From positions 310,001 through 374,000 of the forward strand of contig NZ_CP064908.1 of NCBI RefSeq assembly GCF_015841355.1: 64,000 nt of DNA, written 5' to 3'. The DNA is from Synechococcus sp. CBW1107. Its GTDB lineage: Bacteria; Cyanobacteriota; Cyanobacteriia; PCC-6307; Cyanobiaceae. The position numbers and the translations under genes are program-made. Under the pieces are notes generated by a model. The model did no database searches, was not told the DNA's origin, and saw only the letters and a list, made by a program, of their open reading frames with translations. Of the stretch, positions 42,888 to 51,415 are shown piece after piece; within the stretch, counting starts at the first letter, position 1; the number at the start of each line of letters is the position of its first letter.

Positions 42888-44816
42888 GTGAGCCGATCAG
42901 AATGGATCCCAATCCCCGAGGTTCCCCTGTCCTTCACACCGCCCGAGCAGCGCTGGCAACTGCCCACCCCCCTGCCGCCCAGCCAGGACGACGTCCAGGC
43001 CAGGGGGATGGCGGCCCTCGAGCTGCCGCCGGAATTGCTGGCGGTGCTGCGCCGTCGGGGCTACGACAGCCCCGAGGCGATCAGGGACCTGCTGGAGCCC
43101 CCCGCCGCCCCCGATCCCCGGCTGCACTTCGCCGATCTGGACGTGGCGGTGCGGCGGCTCGTGCGGGCCTGTGCCGAAGCTGAGACGGTCGCGATCTGCG
43201 GCGACTACGACGCCGACGGCATGACCAGCACGGCCCTGCTGGTGGGGGTGCTGGAGCGGCTGGGAGCCCGGCCGCAGGCCGCCATCCCCAGTCGCCAGGA
43301 GGAGGGCTACGGCCTCAACACCGGCATGGTCGAACGCCTCCAGGACGAGGGGGTGGGCCTCCTGGTCACGGTCGACAACGGCATTGCCGCCCGGGAAGCC
43401 CTGGATCGGGCCCGCGATCTGGGGATGGAGGTGATCCTCACCGATCACCACAGCCTGCCCGCGGAGTCACCGCCCTACCTGGCCCTGCTCCATCCGGCCT
43501 GCACTCCCCAGGGCTCCCCCTACCGGGGCCTGGCGGGGGTCGGGCTGGCCTACCTGCTGGCGATGACGCTGGCCACCGAGCTGGGCCGCGCCGATGCCAC
43601 CGCCATGGCTCTGGATCTGTTCTGCATCGGCACAGTGGCCGACATGGCCCCCCTGCTGGGGGTGAACCGGCGCTGGCTGCGCGATGGCCTCCGGCAGCTG
43701 CACGCGTCGCCCCTGCCCGGCCTGCAGGCGCTGCAGAGACTGGCGGGCCTGGGGGATGGCCCCCTCGATGCCACGGCGGTGGCCTTCAAACTGGCCCCGC
43801 GCATCAACGCCGTGGGGCGGCTGGGGGATCCCGCTCTGGTGGTGGATCTGCTCACCACCGGTGACCGCGACCGCGCCATGGCCCTGGCCCAGGACTGCGA
43901 GGCCCTCAACCGTCAGCGTCGAGAGCTCTGTGAGGCGATCGAGGCGGAGGCGGTGGCCCTGGTGGAAGCCGATGGGCCCGAGCCCAGCCCCTTTGTGCTG
44001 CTCGCTCAGACCCACTGGCATCACGGAGTGATCGGCATCGTGGCCGCCAGGCTGGTGGAGCGCTATGGCCTGCCCGTGGCCCTGCTGGCCGGCGAGGGGG
44101 GAGGAAAACTGCGGGCGTCGGTGCGGGCGCCCAGGGGATTTGCGGTCGATCAGGCCCTGAACCATTGCAGCGCCCTGCTGGAGCGCCATGGCGGCCATCC
44201 CGCCGCCGGCGGCTTCACCGTGAAGGCGGAACGGCTGGCCGATCTGCATGAGCGGCTCAACGGACTGGCGGCCAGCTGGCTGGGCGACCGGGGCAGTGGC
44301 TCGCCGGTGGAGCCGGAGGCCTGCCTGGCCCTGGATCGCATCGGCCGTGGCTTCTGGCGCGACCTGCAGCGGCTGGAGCCCCTCGGGGCGGGGCTGCCGG
44401 CGCCGGTGTTCTGGAGCAGCGCCTGCCGGGTGATCAGCCAGCGGCTGCTGCGGGGCGGCCACCTTCAGCTGGAGCTCGAGCAGCAGGGCCGTCGCGTGCG
44501 CGCGATCGCCTGGCGCTGGCAGGGGGAAGGCACCGTGCCGGAGCTGGTGGATGTGGCCTTCCGCCTGCGCAGCGACAGCTGGCAGGGGGAGGAGCGCCTG
44601 CAGCTGGAACTGGTGGGGTTGCGCGGCAGTGGCGGCGGAGATGTGCTGCTCAGACGGCGCCAGCGCTCGTACTGGTGCCGGCGTCAAGGGGATGGCGTGC
44701 TGATCCGCAACGAAGAAGGCCGGGAACTCCAGGTGGAGCTCCCGGCACTGGATCAGCCGGCCTACCTGCGCGCCCTCATCGACGAGGCCGCCCTGGCGCT
44801 GGGGCTTCAGGCCTGA
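42888..44816 (+). CDS. recJ: Single-stranded-DNA-specific exonuclease RecJ
   Basis: RecJ is the 5'-3' exonuclease of recombination and mismatch repair. The 642-residue product has the DHH motifs: AICGDYDADGMTSTA, LVTVDNGIAA, LTDHHSLP and the DHHA1 segment with APRGFAVDQAL and HGGHPAAGGFTV. The start is a GTG at 42888. It is divergent from the CbbY operon, and its end is six bases from the end of psb30. Confidence 0.92.
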   Translation: MSRSEWIPIPEVPLSFTPPEQRWQLPTPLPPSQDDVQARGMAALELPPELLAVLRRRGYDSPEAIRDLLEPPAAPDPRLHFADLDVAVRRLVRACAEAETVAICGDYDADGMTSTALLVGVLERLGARPQAAIPSRQEEGYGLNTGMVERLQDEGVGLLVTVDNGIAAREALDRARDLGMEVILTDHHSLPAESPPYLALLHPACTPQGSPYRGLAGVGLAYLLAMTLATELGRADATAMALDLFCIGTVADMAPLLGVNRRWLRDGLRQLHASPLPGLQALQRLAGLGDGPLDATAVAFKLAPRINAVGRLGDPALVVDLLTTGDRDRAMALAQDCEALNRQRRELCEAIEAEAVALVEADGPEPSPFVLLAQTHWHHGVIGIVAARLVERYGLPVALLAGEGGGKLRASVRAPRGFAVDQALNHCSALLERHGGHPAAGGFTVKAERLADLHERLNGLAASWLGDRGSGSPVEPEACLALDRIGRGFWRDLQRLEPLGAGLPAPVFWSSACRVISQRLLRGGHLQLELEQQGRRVRAIAWRWQGEGTVPELVDVAFRLRSDSWQGEERLQLELVGLRGSGGGDVLLRRRQRSYWCRRQGDGVLIRNEEGRELQVELPALDQPAYLRALIDEAALALGLQA

Positions 44817-44822
44817 ACCCGA

Positions 44823-44930
44823 TCAGAGGGCGCCGCGCTTGTAGAAGAGGATGAAGATCACGGCTGGGCCGGCCAGGGTGATCAGGGCCAGCGCCATGAA
44901 ATTGGCGATCAGATGGAAATCGATTCCCAT
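44823..44930 (-). CDS. psb30: Photosystem II reaction center protein Psb30 (Ycf12)
   Basis: This 35-residue single-helix protein ([20 protein letters not shown], then [15 protein letters not shown]) is the photosystem II subunit Psb30. The length and sequence are typical of the family. It is transcribed opposite to recJ and is divergent from the ykgJ gene at 45046. Confidence 0.95.
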
Positions 44931-45045
44931 GGATGCGGCGCTCGGATAAAGACAGTCCGGTAGGCAGCGTACGGGTCGCGGAGGCCCCAGCCAAGACCGT
45001 TCCCATGCCACTGTGACGCCTTGTCACAGCTGCAGGAGCCGATCG

Positions 45046-45450
45046 ATGGGCGCCGGACCCCACTGGAGCTGCATCAGCGGCTGCGGCGCCTGCTGCCGCC
45101 TGGACCCGGAGCAACGGGGCGAAGCTCTCGAGGCCCTCAGTGAGGAGCAGCGCCGGTTCTACCTCTCGATGGTGGGGGCGGACGGCTGGTGCCGCCACTT
45201 CAACACGGGCTCGAGAACCTGCCGCATCTACGCCGATCGGCCCGAGTTCTGCCGGGTGGGCGCCCTCGCCCAGCTGTTCGCCGTACCGCCCGACCAGGGC
45301 GAGGCTTTCGCGATCGCCTGCTGCCGGCAGCAGATCCGGGAGGAGTATGGAGGGCGCTCGCTCGTGATGCGTCGCTTCGAGCGCTCCACCCGTCAGGCTG
45401 GTGGCCAACCTGCGCGCCCAGCCCCCAGCGAGCACCGCAACCAGCCATGA
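45046..45450 (+). CDS. YkgJ family cysteine cluster protein
   Basis: The 134-residue protein contains the cysteine pattern of the YkgJ family: CISGCGACCRLDP, then WCRHF, CRIYADRPEFCR and a CC pair. Such proteins are thought to bind zinc or an iron-sulfur cluster. ATG 45046 is selected so that the first cysteine lies near the N-terminus. Its stop overlaps the ATG of the first UPF0016 gene. Confidence 0.82.
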   Translation: MGAGPHWSCISGCGACCRLDPEQRGEALEALSEEQRRFYLSMVGADGWCRHFNTGSRTCRIYADRPEFCRVGALAQLFAVPPDQGEAFAIACCRQQIREEYGGRSLVMRRFERSTRQAGGQPARPAPSEHRNQP

Positions 45451-45881
45451 GCGACCCCGTCGATCCGGATCCCGGCCTGAATCACGAGGCCGGCACCAGC
45501 AGCGAGTCCAGTTCGAGCACGGGCCCCGAGACCGGGGCAGGCTCCGAGCCGGAAACCCCCGAGTCGTCGGATTTTGTGGCCGTGGCCGTCACCACGTTCA
45601 CCACGGTCTTTCTCGCCGAGCTGGGCGACAAGACCCAGCTGGCGGCTCTGCTGCTCTCCGCTGAATCCGGACAGCCCGGCGTGGTGTTCGTCGGGGCCGC
45701 CCTGGCCCTGATCTGCTCCAGCCTGGTGGGGGTCCTGCTGGGGCGCTGGCTGGCTGCGGTGCTGCCGGCCCAGCGTCTGGAGCGGATCGCCGGCGTCCTG
45801 ATGGTGTCCCTCGGCCTCTGGCTGGGAGGCCAGGCCGGCCTCGGCCTGCTCCAGCCCGTCCTCGACTTCCCCAATCCCTGA
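45447..45881 (+). CDS. UPF0016/GDT1 family cation transporter, first half
   Basis: The 144-residue protein has a disordered, acidic N-terminal tail of about 45 residues (SSESSSSTGPETG) and then three helices with the transport motif FLAELGDKTQLAALLL. In full-length relatives (TMEM165/GDT1, cyanobacterial Mnx) two such ELGDK(S/T) halves are in one chain and move manganese or calcium out of the cytosol. Here the halves are separate genes 15 bases apart and probably form a heterodimer. Confidence 0.85.
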   Translation: MSDPVDPDPGLNHEAGTSSESSSSTGPETGAGSEPETPESSDFVAVAVTTFTTVFLAELGDKTQLAALLLSAESGQPGVVFVGAALALICSSLVGVLLGRWLAAVLPAQRLERIAGVLMVSLGLWLGGQAGLGLLQPVLDFPNP

Positions 45882-45896
45882 GCCCCCGGCGCCGTC

Positions 45897-46181
45897 ATGC
45901 AGCTCCCGCTCCTGGCCTCCACCTTCCTGACCGTGTTCGTGGCCGAGCTGGGTGACAAGACCCAGCTCACGATCGTGACCATCAGCGGCACCTCCAGCAA
46001 CACCCTGGCGGTGTTCCTGGGCAGTGCCGGCGCGCTGGTGCTCGCCAGCCTGCTCGGGGCCCTGGCGGGCGGCTCTCTCTCCAGCCTGATCCCCACCGAT
46101 GCCCTGCAGCTGGCCGCCTCCCTGGGCTTCCTGGTGATCGGCCTGAGGCTGATCCTGCGCTCCGGAACCGACGCTCCGTAA
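45897..46181 (+). CDS. UPF0016/GDT1 family cation transporter, second half
   Basis: This 94-residue protein has three helices with VFVAELGDKTQLTIVTIS, the second copy of the transport motif. It fits with the preceding gene as the two halves of a manganese/calcium exchanger. Manganese export would protect photosystem II assembly from imbalance; this comes from family knowledge. Confidence 0.85.
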   Translation: MQLPLLASTFLTVFVAELGDKTQLTIVTISGTSSNTLAVFLGSAGALVLASLLGALAGGSLSSLIPTDALQLAASLGFLVIGLRLILRSGTDAP

Positions 46182-46278
46182 AGTTGACCCCGGAGACATC
46201 GATGCCCCGGGGCTTCGCTGCACGCCCCTGCCGGCATCATGCCGCGCGCCTCACCTCCAACTCCGCCCTGACGTTTCG

Positions 46279-48537
46279 ATGAAGTTCACGGTCGCCCACC
46301 TGCTCGACCAGCTCCCAGCCGCCGACGCCCTGCCGGTGGCCAAGCTCGAGAAGGCACTGGGCCTGAGCCTCAAGCCGGACAAGTCCCAGCTGCGCATCGC
46401 CCTGGAGGGTCTGAGCCGGCTGGGGGTGCTGGTGGAAACCGAGGACGGCATCCAGCGGCGCCAGGACGACACCCTGATCGAGGCGCGCCTGCGCTGCTCC
46501 AGCAAGGGCTTCTGCTTCGCCCTGCGCGAGGACGGCGGTGAGGACATCTACATCCGCGATCACCAGCTCAACCATGCCTGGAACGGTGACCGGGTGCTGG
46601 TGCGCATCACCCGGGAGGGGGGCCGCCGCCGCTCGCCGGAGGGTGGCGTCCAGTGCATCCTCGAGCGCGCCACCACCCACCTGCTCGCCCAGGTGGAGCA
46701 GCAGGACGACCGGATCCTGGCCGTGCCCCTCGACGACCGGCTGCTGACCTCGGTGGAGCTGCCGGCCTCCGATGCCGGTTATCTGGACCCCGAGAAGCAG
46801 TCGGTGGTGGAGGTGCTGCTCGACCGCTATCCGGTGGCTCAGTTCCCGCCCCTGGGCCACGTGGAGCGGCGCCTGCCGATCAACGGCGGTGAGGAGGCCG
46901 ATCTGGATCTGCTGCTCACCAAGCACGGTCTGCGCCAGAGGGCGGCGGCTCCGCGCTCCAGCCTGAAGGCCCCCGTAGAGAAGGACCGCACCGACCTGAC
47001 AGCCCTGCCGACCCTGGTGCTGAGTGGCTGGAGTGGCGCCGACGCCCCGATCCTGCCCGCCATCTCCCTGGAGGACGGCGATGAGGGCCCGCGCCTGTGG
47101 ATCCATGTGCCGGCCGTGGCGGAACGCTTCACCCCCGGTGGCAGCCTCGATCTCTGGTTGCGGGAGCAGGGGGAGTCGATCTGTCTGGGTCGTCGCTGGC
47201 TGCCCCTGCTCAGCCAGGCCCTGAGCAGGGCCGCGGCCTTCAAGCCCGGGGAAACCCAGGCCGCCGTCTCGGTGGGGCTGCGCTGCAACCCGGAGGGTGA
47301 GCTGATCGACTACCGCTTTGCCCTCAGCAGCATCCAGCTGGACGCTGTTGTCGATGGCGGCGCTCTGCAGGCCCTGGCGGAGCGCAAGCCCAAGGCACGC
47401 ACCATCCCGGCGGCCCTCAAACCGATCAAGGATCAGCTGCCTCTGCTGGAGCGGCTGCTGGAGATCACGGCCCTGCTGAGGCAGCGCCGGCTGGAGCGCG
47501 GCTCCCTGGAACTGGATCTTCCCCGCCCCAGCCTCGACTCCCTCGCAGACCTCTGCGTCCCGGCTCCTGAGGAGCGCCGCCAGGGCTGGATGGTGCAGCT
47601 TCCCGAGCACCATCCCACCGCCCTGCTGCGGGAGCTGCTGATCCTCGCGAACCGTGCCCTCGGCGCCCATCTCTCCGCCCTGGGGCTGCCAGCCCTGTTT
47701 GCGGTGAACCCTCCGGCCGATGGCAGCGAGATCAATGAAGTGGCCAAGGCGGCCCTGGGGCTCGATATCCCGGTGGAGCTCAGCGACGACGGCAACGCCC
47801 CCGCCCCGGGCGACCTGGCGGCCACCTTTGCGGCCACCGACCGCAGCCGCGTGCTCCAGCGCCAGCTCAGCGAGGTGATCCCTCCGGTCCAGCTGAGCAC
47901 CAGCGCCGAGGCCCACGTGCTGGCCGCCGAACCGGCGGCTTACGCCCCCTGGTGCCTGCCCTCGCTTCACTACGCCGATCTCTGGAATCAGCAGCTGCTG
48001 GTTCTGCTGCTCACCGAGGGCAAGGACCGCCCCAGCGTTCGCCACAAGACCCGTGTCGACCTGGCGAGCGCCAGCTGCCACGGCACGATCGACTGGCCTC
48101 TGCTCACCCCCACCCAGCTCGCCGAACTGCATCAGGCACGCAGCGATTCGATGCTGCAGCGGCTGAGCGGCCGTGCCCGCTTCGCCGCCGAGGTGGAGGC
48201 CGACCTGCTGGCCATGGCCCAGGCCCGGGCCGCCGAACCCCTGGTGGGTCAGACCCTCACCGGTGTGATCAGCGGCGTGCAGAGCTACGGGTTCTTCGTG
48301 GAGATCCCCCCCTCCCAGGTGGAGGGACTGGTGCACGTCAGTTCCCTCAAGGACGACTGGTACGAATACCGCTCACGCCAGAACCGCCTGGTGGGCCGGA
48401 AGAACCGCCGCACCTACATGCTCGGGGATCAGGTGGAGGTGCAGATCCAGAACGTCGATGCCCTGCGCCATCAGATCGATCTGGCCGTGCTGCTGCCCGA
48501 GGGCGACGAGGAGAGCGGCGAAGACGGGGAGGACTGA
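46279..48537 (+). CDS. RNB-domain (RNase II/R family) protein with degenerate active site
   Basis: The 752-residue product has an N-terminal winged-helix/cold-shock region, a central RNB domain and a C-terminal S1 domain (TLTGVISGVQSYGFFVEIPP, near residues 660-735). The usual catalytic stretch with four aspartates (IDxxxxxDxDDA) is replaced by LVLSGWSGADAPILPA (about residue 254 on), and the SPIRRYADL arginines by LPSLHYADL. The fold continues normally with LWIHVPAVAERFTPGGSLDLW, so this looks like an RNA-binding pseudo-enzyme. It may have regulatory or RNA-chaperone function. Confidence 0.8.
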   Translation: MKFTVAHLLDQLPAADALPVAKLEKALGLSLKPDKSQLRIALEGLSRLGVLVETEDGIQRRQDDTLIEARLRCSSKGFCFALREDGGEDIYIRDHQLNHAWNGDRVLVRITREGGRRRSPEGGVQCILERATTHLLAQVEQQDDRILAVPLDDRLLTSVELPASDAGYLDPEKQSVVEVLLDRYPVAQFPPLGHVERRLPINGGEEADLDLLLTKHGLRQRAAAPRSSLKAPVEKDRTDLTALPTLVLSGWSGADAPILPAISLEDGDEGPRLWIHVPAVAERFTPGGSLDLWLREQGESICLGRRWLPLLSQALSRAAAFKPGETQAAVSVGLRCNPEGELIDYRFALSSIQLDAVVDGGALQALAERKPKARTIPAALKPIKDQLPLLERLLEITALLRQRRLERGSLELDLPRPSLDSLADLCVPAPEERRQGWMVQLPEHHPTALLRELLILANRALGAHLSALGLPALFAVNPPADGSEINEVAKAALGLDIPVELSDDGNAPAPGDLAATFAATDRSRVLQRQLSEVIPPVQLSTSAEAHVLAAEPAAYAPWCLPSLHYADLWNQQLLVLLLTEGKDRPSVRHKTRVDLASASCHGTIDWPLLTPTQLAELHQARSDSMLQRLSGRARFAAEVEADLLAMAQARAAEPLVGQTLTGVISGVQSYGFFVEIPPSQVEGLVHVSSLKDDWYEYRSRQNRLVGRKNRRTYMLGDQVEVQIQNVDALRHQIDLAVLLPEGDEESGEDGED

Positions 48538-48540
48538 GCG

Positions 48541-49164
48541 GTGGATCCGGTGGTTCTGGCGGTGACGGGTGCCTCCGCCATGCCGCTGGCGGAGCGGGGC
48601 CTGCAGTTGCTGCTGGAGGCCGGTGAAACGGTCGAGCTGGTGGCCAGCCGCGGTGCCCTCGGGGTCTGGCTGGCGGAGCAGGGGGTGCGCATTCCCGCCG
48701 AACCCGACCTCCAGACCCGCTTCTGGCGGGAGCGCACGGGCGTGACCACGGGCCACTTGCGCTGTCACCGCTGGAACGATCAGGCGGCGGCGATCGCCAG
48801 TGGCAGCTTTCGAACCCGCGGCATGGTGATCCTGCCGGCCAGCATGGGAACGGTGGGGCGGATCGCCAGTGGGGTGGCCCTCGATCTGGTGGAGCGGGTG
48901 GCCGATGTGCACCTCAAGGAAGGACGGCCCCTGGTGATCGCCCCCCGGGAAATGCCCTGGAGCCTGGTTCATCTGCGTAACCTGACAACCCTGGCGGAGG
49001 CGGGTGCGCGCATCGCCCCACCGATTCCGGCCTGGTATCACCGCCCCACCAGCCTGGAGGAGATGGTCGACTTTCTGGTGATCCGGGTGTTCGATGGCCT
49101 CGGCTATGACCTCGGCAGCCTGCGCCGCTGGGAGGGCCCGGTGGCCACCGCGGCCAGCCTCTGA
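48541..49164 (+). CDS. ubiX: UbiX family flavin prenyltransferase
   Basis: UbiX makes the prenylated FMN cofactor used by UbiD-type decarboxylases. The 207-residue product has a flavodoxin-like fold with VLAVTGASAMPLAERGL, FRTRGMVILPASMGTVGRIASG and the active-site region RPLVIAPREMPWSLVHLRNL. The length is typical. The GTG at 48541 is four bases after the RNB gene stop. The UbiD partner is not in the window. Confidence 0.9.
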   Translation: MDPVVLAVTGASAMPLAERGLQLLLEAGETVELVASRGALGVWLAEQGVRIPAEPDLQTRFWRERTGVTTGHLRCHRWNDQAAAIASGSFRTRGMVILPASMGTVGRIASGVALDLVERVADVHLKEGRPLVIAPREMPWSLVHLRNLTTLAEAGARIAPPIPAWYHRPTSLEEMVDFLVIRVFDGLGYDLGSLRRWEGPVATAASL

Positions 49165-49201
49165 GCCCCGCCCGCCGGTCTCTCCCGGACTGATCCCCTC
49201 C

Positions 49202-49714
49202 GTGCTGCAACGCCTCCTGCTCCTGCCTCTGCTGGCCCCGCTGCTGGCCGTGCTGCTGGTGGCGGCCCTGAACCCCACCCCCGCCAGTCGTCTGCGGCTG
49301 CTGATCTGGACCTCCCCGGCCCTGCCGATCGGGGTCTGGATGGCGCTGGCGGCCAGCGGCGGGGCCGCTCTCAGCGCCGGCCTCACGGCCCTGGCCCTGC
49401 AGCAACCGGGGGATCTGCCCCTGCGGCGGCGATCGGTCCAGGCGACCGGAGGCGGCGACCGGCGCGAGCCTGAACCCTGGGATGACAGGCCCGAGCGGGG
49501 TGACGGGCCTGCTCAGCAGCAACCGACCTCGTGGTACGCCGGACCCGAGCGCTCCCCCCAGGACCCACCTCCCACCCTCTCGGTGCCCTTCCGGATCCTG
49601 CGCACGGGCCGTGGTGGAGCACCGGCCTCAGCCCCCGCAGGGGCCACCGCAACGGCCACCCCAGCCCAGGGCGACGCCAAGGGCTGGGAGACACCCCCCA
49701 GCGACGACTGGTGA
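49202..49714 (+). CDS. Small membrane protein, LapA-like, with disordered tail
   Basis: The 170-residue product from GTG 49202 has two hydrophobic helices (LLLLPLLAPLLAVLLVAALN and PIGVWMALAASGGAALSAGL), separated by a short loop as in LapA-domain proteins. A polar Pro/Gly-rich tail of about 100 residues follows. It could shape membrane or envelope assembly. The function is inferred from topology alone. Confidence 0.6.
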   Translation: MLQRLLLLPLLAPLLAVLLVAALNPTPASRLRLLIWTSPALPIGVWMALAASGGAALSAGLTALALQQPGDLPLRRRSVQATGGGDRREPEPWDDRPERGDGPAQQQPTSWYAGPERSPQDPPPTLSVPFRILRTGRGGAPASAPAGATATATPAQGDAKGWETPPSDDW

Positions 49715-49789
49715 TGCGGAGTCCCTGGCAGCCCAGCGGCCGGGGATGCCTAAAGTCGGGAGCAGTGTTTCGAGCTGAGGCTCCAGCCT

Positions 49790-50200
49790 GTGAGCGACTC
49801 CGCCAGCCCCGCGCCGAATCCCGCCAAGGTCAAGCCACCGGCTCCGGAGGACAAGCCCTTCGCCGAATTCATCCCTCAGCTGTTTCTGCCGGCTCTGCTC
49901 AAAGCCATCGAGGCCTTCGGGGGGGCCGCCCCGCAGCTGAGCTTCGAGCAGGGGCCGATGCCGGTGGTGGCCAGCCCCTGCTGGCAGGTGATCGGAACCT
50001 TCCCCGGGGGCCGACGCTTCTGGCTCTGTTTCACCGAGCCGACCATCAGCTCCGCCAAGACCATCACCCTGGCGGAGGGGGGCAGTGAACCCAGCCTGCT
50101 GGAGTCGTTTCTGATCGACGAGAAAAAAACGACCCTGGCCCTGCTGATCTCGAGGGTGGTCTCCAGGCTCAACAGCCAGAAGTGGCTGGGCCCCAACTGA
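49790..50200 (+). CDS. DUF2996 family protein
   Basis: The 136-residue product has a polar N-terminus and then the conserved block FIPQLFLPALLKAIEAFGG, VASPCWQVIGTFPGGRRFWLCF, KTITLAEGG and ESFLIDEKKTTLALLISRVV. This is the cyanobacterial and plastid DUF2996 family, with no established function. The start is a GTG. It precedes acsF by about 120 bases. Confidence 0.82.
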   Translation: MSDSASPAPNPAKVKPPAPEDKPFAEFIPQLFLPALLKAIEAFGGAAPQLSFEQGPMPVVASPCWQVIGTFPGGRRFWLCFTEPTISSAKTITLAEGGSEPSLLESFLIDEKKTTLALLISRVVSRLNSQKWLGPN

Positions 50201-50323
50201 GCGGCCAGCCCCGGCTGAGCGGCGGTTCCAACCGCAACGACCTGTCCGCGGACGCTTCACATCCAGGCCGGGTAGGCGGAAAGCCCACCTACGATGGTCG
50301 GAACACTCCACTGTTCTGCCCGC

Positions 50324-51415
50324 ATGGTGCCCCCCGTCGCTGCGCCCACCGCTACCCGTGGCACCAACGCCGCTGAAGCCAAGGCCTTCAAGGAGCCGGT
50401 GAAGGACACGATCCTCACACCGCGTTTCTACACCACGGATTTCGAGGCGATGGCCGCCATGGATCTGCGGCCCAACGAGCAGGAGCTCGAAGCGATCTGC
50501 GAGGAGTTCCGCAAGGACTACAACCGCCACCACTTCGTGCGCAACGAGGAATTCGAGGGTGCTGCGGACAAGCTTGATCCCGAAACCCGCAAGGTGTTCG
50601 TGGAGTTTCTGGAGCAGAGCTGCACCTCGGAGTTTTCGGGCTTCCTTCTGTACAAGGAACTGAGCCGCCGCATCAAGGAGAAGAATCCGCTGCTGGCCGA
50701 GTGCTTTGCCCACATGGCCCGGGATGAGGCCCGCCATGCCGGCTTCCTGAACAAGGCCATGGGTGATTTCGGCCTGCAACTGGATCTGGGCTTCCTCACC
50801 GCCAACAAGGCCTACACCTTCTTCAAGCCGAAGTTCATCTTTTACGCCACCTATCTTTCCGAGAAGATCGGCTACTGGCGTTACATCGCCATCTACCGTC
50901 ACCTGGAGAAGCATCCAGAGAGCAAGATCTTCCCGATCTTCAACTTCTTCGAGAACTGGTGCCAGGACGAGAACCGCCACGGGGACTTCTTCGATGCCCT
51001 CATGAAGGCCCAGCCCGACACCGTCCGGGGTCTGCAGGCCCGGCTGTGGTGCCGCTTCTTCCTGCTGGCGGTGTTCGCCACCATGTACGTGCGCGACGTG
51101 GCCCGCAAGGAGTTCTACGAGGCACTCGGCCTGGATGCCCGTGAGTACGACAAGATGGTGATCGCCAAGACCAACGAAACCTCGGCCCGCGTGTTCCCGG
51201 TGGTGCTCAATGTGGATCATCCCAAGTTCTACACGCGTCTGGAGCGCATCGTCACCAACAATGCCGCCCTCAGTGACGCCGAGGCCAGCGGCGGCCCTGC
51301 CCCGATCAAGGCTCTGCGCAAGCTTCCCTACTGGATGGCCAATGGTCTGGAGATGGCCAAGCTGTTCCTGATGGCACCGATCCGCAGCGAGGAGTTCCAG
51401 CCGGCCGTGCGTTGA
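50324..51415 (+). CDS. acsF: Mg-protoporphyrin IX monomethyl ester oxidative cyclase
   Basis: AcsF (ChlE) is the diiron, oxygen-dependent enzyme that forms ring E of chlorophyll. The 363-residue product has two diiron ExxH motifs: [10 protein letters not shown] near residue 133 and [11 protein letters not shown] near residue 215. The conserved [14 protein letters not shown] begins near residue 35. It acts at the thylakoid membrane. The length is normal. An inverted repeat-like GTAGG...CCTAC lies about 40 bases upstream of the ATG. Confidence 0.95.

What the first reader, a model, noticed from the sequence alone, without database searches (positions are those of the whole stretch)
46279..48537. 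RNB protein without its catalytic aspartates
The RNase II/R active site needs an Asp cluster; here that position reads LVLSGWSGADAPILPA, and the conserved arginines of SPIRRYADL are LPSLHYADL, while the rest of the fold and the S1 domain remain. This looks like a maintained pseudo-nuclease that could bind RNA or regulate the active RNase.
Basis: partly seen in the sequence, partly recalled or inferred. Interest (0 to 1): 0.55.

Follow-up and report, generated by a model that had tools for sequence, protein, structure and literature searches.

The report
Zam, a decayed cyanobacterial RNase R
The gene encodes Zam, a protein that cyanobacteria in general carry: it descends from an RNA-degrading enzyme, has lost the cutting site, and is still strongly maintained, probably to sense redox state and adjust RNA handling; its dead active site is already published.

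Summary
Window 46279-48537 encodes a 752-aa RNB protein lacking the four catalytic aspartates and R500 of RNase II; the genome holds a second, intact RNB gene. It is the picocyanobacterial ortholog of Zam, whose degenerate active site, redox cysteines and deletion phenotypes were published in 2022 (PMC9145284). So it is a member of a known family. A Zam query matched 386 of 388 class genomes, two of them only weakly. None of 247 aligned Zam sequences has the four aspartates. Whole-gene dN/dS is 0.06-0.19 in 19 close pairs; CSD1 and S1 are conserved, the nuclease domain drifts. Most likely mechanism (partly shown in PCC 7002, inferred here): a non-catalytic, redox-switched factor acting through CSD1 and S1 on RNA or RNase E. 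Seen here beyond what I read in that paper: decay is graded (13 of 247 keep three aspartates, 35 keep D209-D210); the cysteine pair is missing in a few lineages; one complete genome lacks Zam; a ubiX-type gene follows zam in most loci with enough flank. Unresolved: Anabaena Alr1240, called Zam by one group, was reported active by another.

The parts
46279..48537 (+). zam ortholog, 752 aa, RNase R-like architecture (N-terminal helical part, two cold-shock/OB domains, RNB, S1)
   Evidence: orthology; model mef747afe8817 mean pLDDT 86.8, pTM 0.83
46486..46653 (+). CSD1 (OB_RNB, aa 70-125), the most conserved domain
   Evidence: Pfam OB_RNB 70.8 bits; mean identity 0.749 over randomly sampled Zam pairs
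46495..46497 (+). Cys73, first redox cysteine of Zam
   Evidence: same residue number as C73 of PCC 7002 Zam (PMC9145284); C73 and C79 both Cys in 240 of 243 rows that cover both columns
46513..46515 (+). Cys79, second redox cysteine of Zam
   Evidence: PMC9145284
46987..48015 (+). RNB domain (aa 237-579), catalytically degenerate
   Evidence: Pfam RNB 158 bits; mean identity 0.356 over randomly sampled Zam pairs, the lowest of the six segments compared
47014..47061 (+). former Mg-binding loop, LVLSGWSGADAPILPA; D201/D207/D209/D210 positions read S/P/L/P
47956..47982 (+). LPSLHYADL, counterpart of SPIRRYADL; R500 position is Leu
48241..48489 (+). S1 domain (aa 655-737), strongly conserved
   Evidence: Pfam S1 46.2 bits; mean identity 0.710 over randomly sampled Zam pairs
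48541..49164 (+). flavoprotein of the UbiX type, next gene downstream; conserved neighbour
   Evidence: Pfam Flavoprotein 123 bits; a match to it lies on the same strand within 1200 nt downstream of zam in 106 of 111 picocyanobacterial rows and 59 of 91 other rows that have at least 700 nt downstream; the name UbiX is recalled

Best explanation
The gene is zam, a cyanobacterial descendant of RNase R that has lost exoribonuclease catalysis. It most likely works as a non-catalytic regulator: the CSD1 and S1 domains contact RNA and/or RNase E, and a disulfide between Cys73 and Cys79 in a CSD1 loop sets its activity by cellular redox state, changing RNA turnover and thereby pigment and photosystem levels. 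Shown here by sequence: loss of the catalytic residues, conservation of CSD1, S1 and the cysteine pair, purifying selection, and an intact second RNB gene. Shown elsewhere in Synechococcus PCC 7002: cysteine-dependent function and deletion phenotypes. Inferred: that the window protein behaves the same, and that the target is RNase E or RNA.
For: Active-site residues absent: 0 of 247 aligned Zam rows have D/D/D/D, and 0 of 129 picocyanobacterial rows have an acidic residue at positions 207, 209 or 210. Family: 66 Zam rows form one clade apart from five RNase R rows, SH-aLRT 100 on a quick tree without bootstrap; a Zam query matches 386 of 388 class genomes, of which G420 (E 9e-8, its Rnb gene) and G540 (E 2e-10, a fragmented assembly, not examined) are weak. 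Selection: whole-gene dN/dS 0.055-0.191 in the 19 close pairs printed; in the four pairs with the window gene CSD1 and S1 dN = 0 (dS 0.30-0.58 and 0.21-0.31), RNB 0.18-0.21. Redox cysteines kept in 240 of 243 covered rows. Fold: model matches RNase R 5xgu (TM 0.69 by query, 0.81 by target) and yeast pseudonuclease Ssd1 7am1 (0.56, 0.53). Published function: PMC9145284 (abstract, parts 1-3 of 6, discussion, legends).
Against: Purified PCC 7002 Zam showed no RNA binding (data not shown, aggregation-prone; PMC9145284). The RNase E link rests on Anabaena Alr1240, which a review reports as an active RNase II; if Alr1240 is Zam, a degenerate site may still cut RNA. Family code f18 keeps Zam without the cysteines, and L147, L101 and L134 have only one of them, so the redox switch is not universal. 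No experiment on the window species.
Confidence: 0.6

Rival explanations
1. Zam binds specific mRNAs directly, like the fungal pseudonuclease Ssd1, and controls their translation or stability without RNase E.
For: CSD1 and S1 are the conserved parts; Ssd1 is among the fold matches; in Ssd1 RNA binding moved to a conserved outer patch (PMC8934651, abstract).
Against: No RNA bound by purified PCC 7002 Zam in the cited tests (PMC9145284); the fold match to Ssd1 (rank 35) is weaker than to RNase R; I saw no RNA targets reported in what I read.
Confidence: 0.25
2. Zam still cuts RNA, with other residues holding the metal ion or with weak activity.
For: Alr1240 of Anabaena, called Zam by PMC9145284 and here fitting the zam-ubiX-F2 gene order (three-gene unit alr1240-alr1241-alr1242), is reported to degrade unstructured RNA (PMC10989914 passages). 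Relatives in one group keep D201, D209, D210 and R500.
Against: In the window protein all four positions and R500 are changed and no conserved acidic cluster replaces them; purified PCC 7002 Zam showed no nuclease activity (data not shown, PMC9145284).
Confidence: 0.07
3. A decaying gene on its way to loss.
For: RNB domain drifts; one complete genome (G420) has no Zam; zam is split over two frames in G235.
Against: dN/dS 0.055-0.191 over 19 close pairs and no amino-acid change in CSD1 and S1 in the four window pairs; matches in 386 of 388 genomes.
Confidence: 0.02

Closest known systems
Zam of Synechococcus PCC 7002 / Synechocystis PCC 6803 (sll1910)
   Same: Same architecture, degenerate RNB site, C73 and C79 at the same residue numbers, second Rnb gene in the genome
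   Different: The window protein belongs to the picocyanobacterial branch, where acids at 207/209/210 are gone in 129 of 129 rows, R500 and Y253 are changed in the window protein, and a further Cys126 is fixed (129 of 129 picocyanobacterial rows, 0 of 118 others)
RNase R (TIGR02063; E. coli rnr)
   Same: Domain order, fold (5xgu), sister group in the tree
   Different: Catalytic aspartates and arginine lost; 211 bits against a cut-off of 597.85
Ssd1, yeast pseudonuclease of the RNase II family (7am1)
   Same: Non-catalytic RNB protein with conserved cold-shock domains (PMC8934651, PMC8097288 abstracts)
   Different: Eukaryotic, derived from Dis3L2 (PMC8097288 abstract); whether it has anything like the Zam cysteine pair was not tested
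Cyanobacterial Rnb (here P0002)
   Same: RNB domain, same genome
   Different: Keeps D/E/D/D and R500; Pfam finds no CSD or S1. The Synechocystis rnb product is described as essential in the abstract of PMC3293843

Membership tests
Zam | Cyanobacterial clade of RNB proteins separate from Rnb and from RNase R | tested here: met
   Zam rows one clade against five RNase R rows (SH-aLRT 100, quick tree); window row L002 inside. Separation from Rnb by best BLAST match only and by the four Rnb-type rows in the outgroup
Zam | Degenerate RNB active site | tested here: met
Zam | Two cysteines, C73 and C79, in CSD1 | tested here: met
   P0001 has Cys at 73 and 79
Zam | Redox-active, required in vivo; deletion alters pigments and gives acetazolamide tolerance | not testable with these tools
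   Published for PCC 7002 and PCC 6803 (PMC9145284)
RNase R / RNase II (active enzyme) | Four catalytic aspartates and R500 | tested here: not met
   S/P/L/P and Leu
RNase R (NCBIfam equivalog TIGR02063) | Score over the curated cut-off of 597.85 bits | tested here: not met
   211.2 bits
RNase R fold | CSD1-CSD2-RNB-S1 fold | tested here: met

The most novel reading that the evidence does not exclude
Zam is caught in graded decay: some living lineages hold Zam proteins that still have D201, D209, D210 and R500 and may be bifunctional, partly active RNases, while others, including picocyanobacteria, are pure regulators; the regulatory role through CSD1 and S1 arose before catalysis was lost, as proposed for fungal Ssd1/Dis3L2. 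That could also explain why one cyanobacterial Zam is reported active and another inactive.
Probability: 0.3. Interest if true: 0.5.

Novelty: already known. Interest (0 to 1): 0.22.

Why it matters
PMC9145284 notes that Zam is annotated as a functional exonuclease in many genomes; none of the 247 sequences aligned here has the full active site, although some match the exoribonuclease superfamily model above its cut-off. The graded series, with near-intact and empty sites among orthologs, makes the order 'new function first, catalysis lost later' testable in bacteria, and the Alr1240 conflict bears on how RNase E is controlled in cyanobacteria.

Tried and rejected
Repeated independent loss of the D209-D210 pair, as in fungi: parsimony gave 2 changes on the 117-row tree and 3 on the 71-row tree (D209 alone: 7 on the first), but the AU test did not reject all other Zams (45 rows, L275 set aside) as one clade, p-AU 0.783, and that tree was 14.8 log units better than the free one. 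So one main loss suffices; only L275 (HIDS, inside the DD group at SH-aLRT 83 to 93) suggests a further one. The second test begun (DD rows as one clade) did not finish and was not repeated. Both trees are quick ones without bootstrap, with warnings on letter make-up and on long rows.

Identifying Anabaena PCC 7120 through its plasmids: three accession look-ups found no record; I then relied on gene order only. A plasmid search with the N-terminal 156 aa of Zam found nothing. The paper on Alr1240 and RNase E (doi 10.1093/nar/gkaa092) is not held; I know it only through passages in other papers and recall.

Decay to a dead gene, and rescue by other acidic residues, were rejected. Rows dropped before counts: duplicates (266 Zam ORFs to 247); for the tree L172, L178, L179, L078, L104, L111 and rows at or above 88% (others) or 68% (picocyanobacterial) identity to a kept one, leaving 85 and 27; the 71-row tree used 20 DD, 32 other, 8 picocyanobacterial and 6 added Zam rows with 5 RNase R rows, chosen by me for spread. 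Two of those five RNase R rows (L324, L325) are unannotated in their records and were taken as RNase R by match and by their D/D/D/D. In the 247 rows two (L178, L179) are fragments and L172 lacks its N-terminal part. The 19 dN/dS pairs are those between 0.88 and 0.995 identity among the rows chosen.

Full report
What is there. The ORF at 46279-48537 (+) encodes 752 residues with the domain order of RNase R: OB_RNB (70-125), CSD2 (88-131), RNB (237-579, 158 bits) and S1 (655-737). It reaches only 211 bits on the NCBIfam RNase R model, whose cut-off is 597.85. Its predicted structure is good (mean pLDDT 86.8, pTM 0.83, alignment of 37 sequences) and matches E. coli RNase R 5xgu (TM 0.69 by query, 0.81 by target), other RNase R and Dis3 structures, and, at rank 35, the yeast pseudonuclease Ssd1 (0.56, 0.53).

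The active site. The proposed refutation, aspartates recovered elsewhere, was tested: columns at least 95% D/E in picocyanobacterial rows between residues 200 and 600 are nine and scattered. The genome has a second RNB gene with D/E/D/D and R500. E at position 207 also stands in the Rnb-side rows L298, L301 (the same gene as L284) and L303, while four rows from outside the class have D; I take E there as tolerated, which is an inference.

What it is. The 80 loci kept by the genome-contig scan are mostly records named Synechococcus, Cyanobium or uncultured cyanobacteria; WH 5701 is 94% identical in its best segment. The family is Zam. PMC9145284 (2022; I read the abstract, parts 1-3 of 6, the discussion and the legends) states that Zam proteins are a cyanobacterial RNB clade with an extremely degenerate active site, two cysteines C73 and C79 in CSD1 that are redox-active and needed in vivo, and deletion phenotypes of slower growth, less phycocyanin, altered PSI:PSII and acetazolamide tolerance. 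The window protein has Cys at exactly 73 and 79. My searches of the held library on this family were made; they cover open-licence PMC papers only.

Census. A Zam query matched 386 of 388 genomes of the class. The two misses, G387 and G549, are assemblies of about 1150 and 910 contigs. Two of the 386 are weak: G540 (E 1.8e-10, about 850 contigs, not examined) and G420 (E 9.2e-8, one contig, 99% complete), where the match is the Rnb gene, the single RNB found in that genome: a lineage without Zam. In the wider phylum 194 of 386 genomes matched; five of these lie outside the class and are weak. Four of the five are RNB proteins with D/D/D/D; the fifth matches over S1 only.

Conservation. The alignment holds 247 different Zam sequences: 129 that I call picocyanobacterial (the window's family code f1 and the loci) and 118 others. 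Mean identity over randomly sampled pairs is 0.749 in CSD1, 0.710 in S1, 0.481 in CSD2 and 0.356 in RNB. In 19 close pairs whole-gene dN/dS is 0.055-0.191; in the four pairs with the window gene CSD1 and S1 carry no amino-acid change at dS 0.21-0.58 while RNB has 0.18-0.21. The protein is maintained, and most of all in CSD1 and S1. In the 21-codon loop at the former active site the small counts give ratios from 0 to about 2, too noisy to read.

Graded decay. No row of 247 has D/D/D/D. Thirteen have three of the four (ten D-A-D-D, two D-V-D-D, one R-D-D-D), and 35 keep both D209 and D210, 34 of them with R500. Position 207 is acidic in 6 of 118 other rows (one D, five E) and in 0 of 129 picocyanobacterial ones. 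Two rows of the D-A-D-D type score 564 and 582 bits on the RNase R model, close to its cut-off, and 446 bits on the exoribonuclease superfamily model, over its cut-off of 368.6. The 30 best RNB-domain scores among 195 class genomes, up to 351 bits, all fall in genes that match Zam better than Rnb. So a strong RNB match does not show activity, and some Zams may not be fully dead. PMC9145284 says in its discussion that the canonical site is in no Zam protein, and in its results that most lack the four acids; the four-residue count here agrees. In the four genomes of family code f49 examined, Zam reads A-G-D-F, P-L-Q-M, P-L-Q-T or P-L-Q-C at the four positions and matches the RNB model only at its two ends. 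Whether the D209-D210 pair was lost repeatedly is not settled: one clade of the other Zams is not rejected (p-AU 0.783).

Redox cysteines. Both are Cys in 240 of 243 rows covering both columns. The three exceptions are L101 (Synechococcus RCC307) and L134 with Ser73, and L147 with Gly79; L171, gapped at 79, has Phe at 73. In family code f18 all seven genomes examined lack both (R[FY]SRGS[FY]WA). All 129 picocyanobacterial rows have a further Cys126 that none of 118 others has. The switch model must allow for these.

Neighbourhood. A match to the window's UbiX-type flavoprotein lies on the same strand within 1200 nt downstream in 106 of 111 picocyanobacterial and 59 of 91 other rows with enough flank; the median match begins at nucleotide 31. 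Of 40 loci looked at gene by gene, 12 are of family code f7 (Nostocaceae by my inference), and 11 of these have the order zam, ubiX, F2. Nostoc PCC 7120 has a transcription unit alr1240-alr1241-alr1242 with a nitrogen-regulated antisense unit (PMC10287535, one passage). That fits Alr1240 being Zam, as PMC9145284 says; yet the review PMC10989914 (passages) reports Alr1240 as acting like RNase II and as binding RNase E and enhancing it. A later paper detected RNase II with RNase E in Anabaena (PMC10783494, passages). The conflict over activity is unresolved; the original paper was not held.

Mechanism. Most likely a redox-switched, non-catalytic factor that acts through CSD1 and S1 on RNA or RNase E. 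Shown: loss of site, conservation, selection (here); cysteine dependence and phenotypes (PCC 7002). Inferred: the partner, and the transfer to this species. The nearest functional parallel is Ssd1: cold-shock domains conserved, active-site mutations at least four times in fungi, and a bifunctional ancestor proposed (PMC8097288, abstract and one section; PMC8934651, abstract).

Verdict. Observation and interpretation hold, and the thing is an ortholog of a described protein family. Interest is low as a discovery; the graded active site and the Alr1240 conflict are the parts worth following.

Noticed in passing
L171, L277, L316-L322 (genomes of family code f18): Zam proteins in which both redox cysteines of CSD1 are replaced, in all seven genomes examined.
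   Followed up: partly
L317 / L172 (G235:C1:735597-737608): zam lies in two ORFs in different frames (281 and 475 aa), while relatives have one frame of about 690 aa; broken gene, programmed shift or sequencing error not decided.
   Followed up: no
G420 (L284, L301): A one-contig, 99% complete cyanobacterial genome with a single RNB match, of the Rnb type, and no Zam.
   Followed up: partly
window 42888-51415: Two adjacent GDT1-family half-size genes (45468-46181) and a CxxCxxCC gene upstream of zam; DUF2996 (49790-50197) and an acsF-like gene (50294-51415) downstream; a RecJ-like gene at 42888-44816 (the names RecJ and acsF are recalled).
   Followed up: no
L087: Record titled Bifidobacterium breve MAG that carries a 66% identical Zam and so is evidently a mislabelled cyanobacterial bin.
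   Followed up: no
plasmid collection: Nine Acaryochloris plasmid records are among the 154 with a match to a near-intact Zam (tally); their RNB genes were not looked at.
   Followed up: no
PMC3293843 against PMC10989914: The 2012 abstract states that Synechocystis PCC 6803 has only one RNase II-family member, while the review lists sll1290 and sll1910; Zam seems to have been left out.
   Followed up: no
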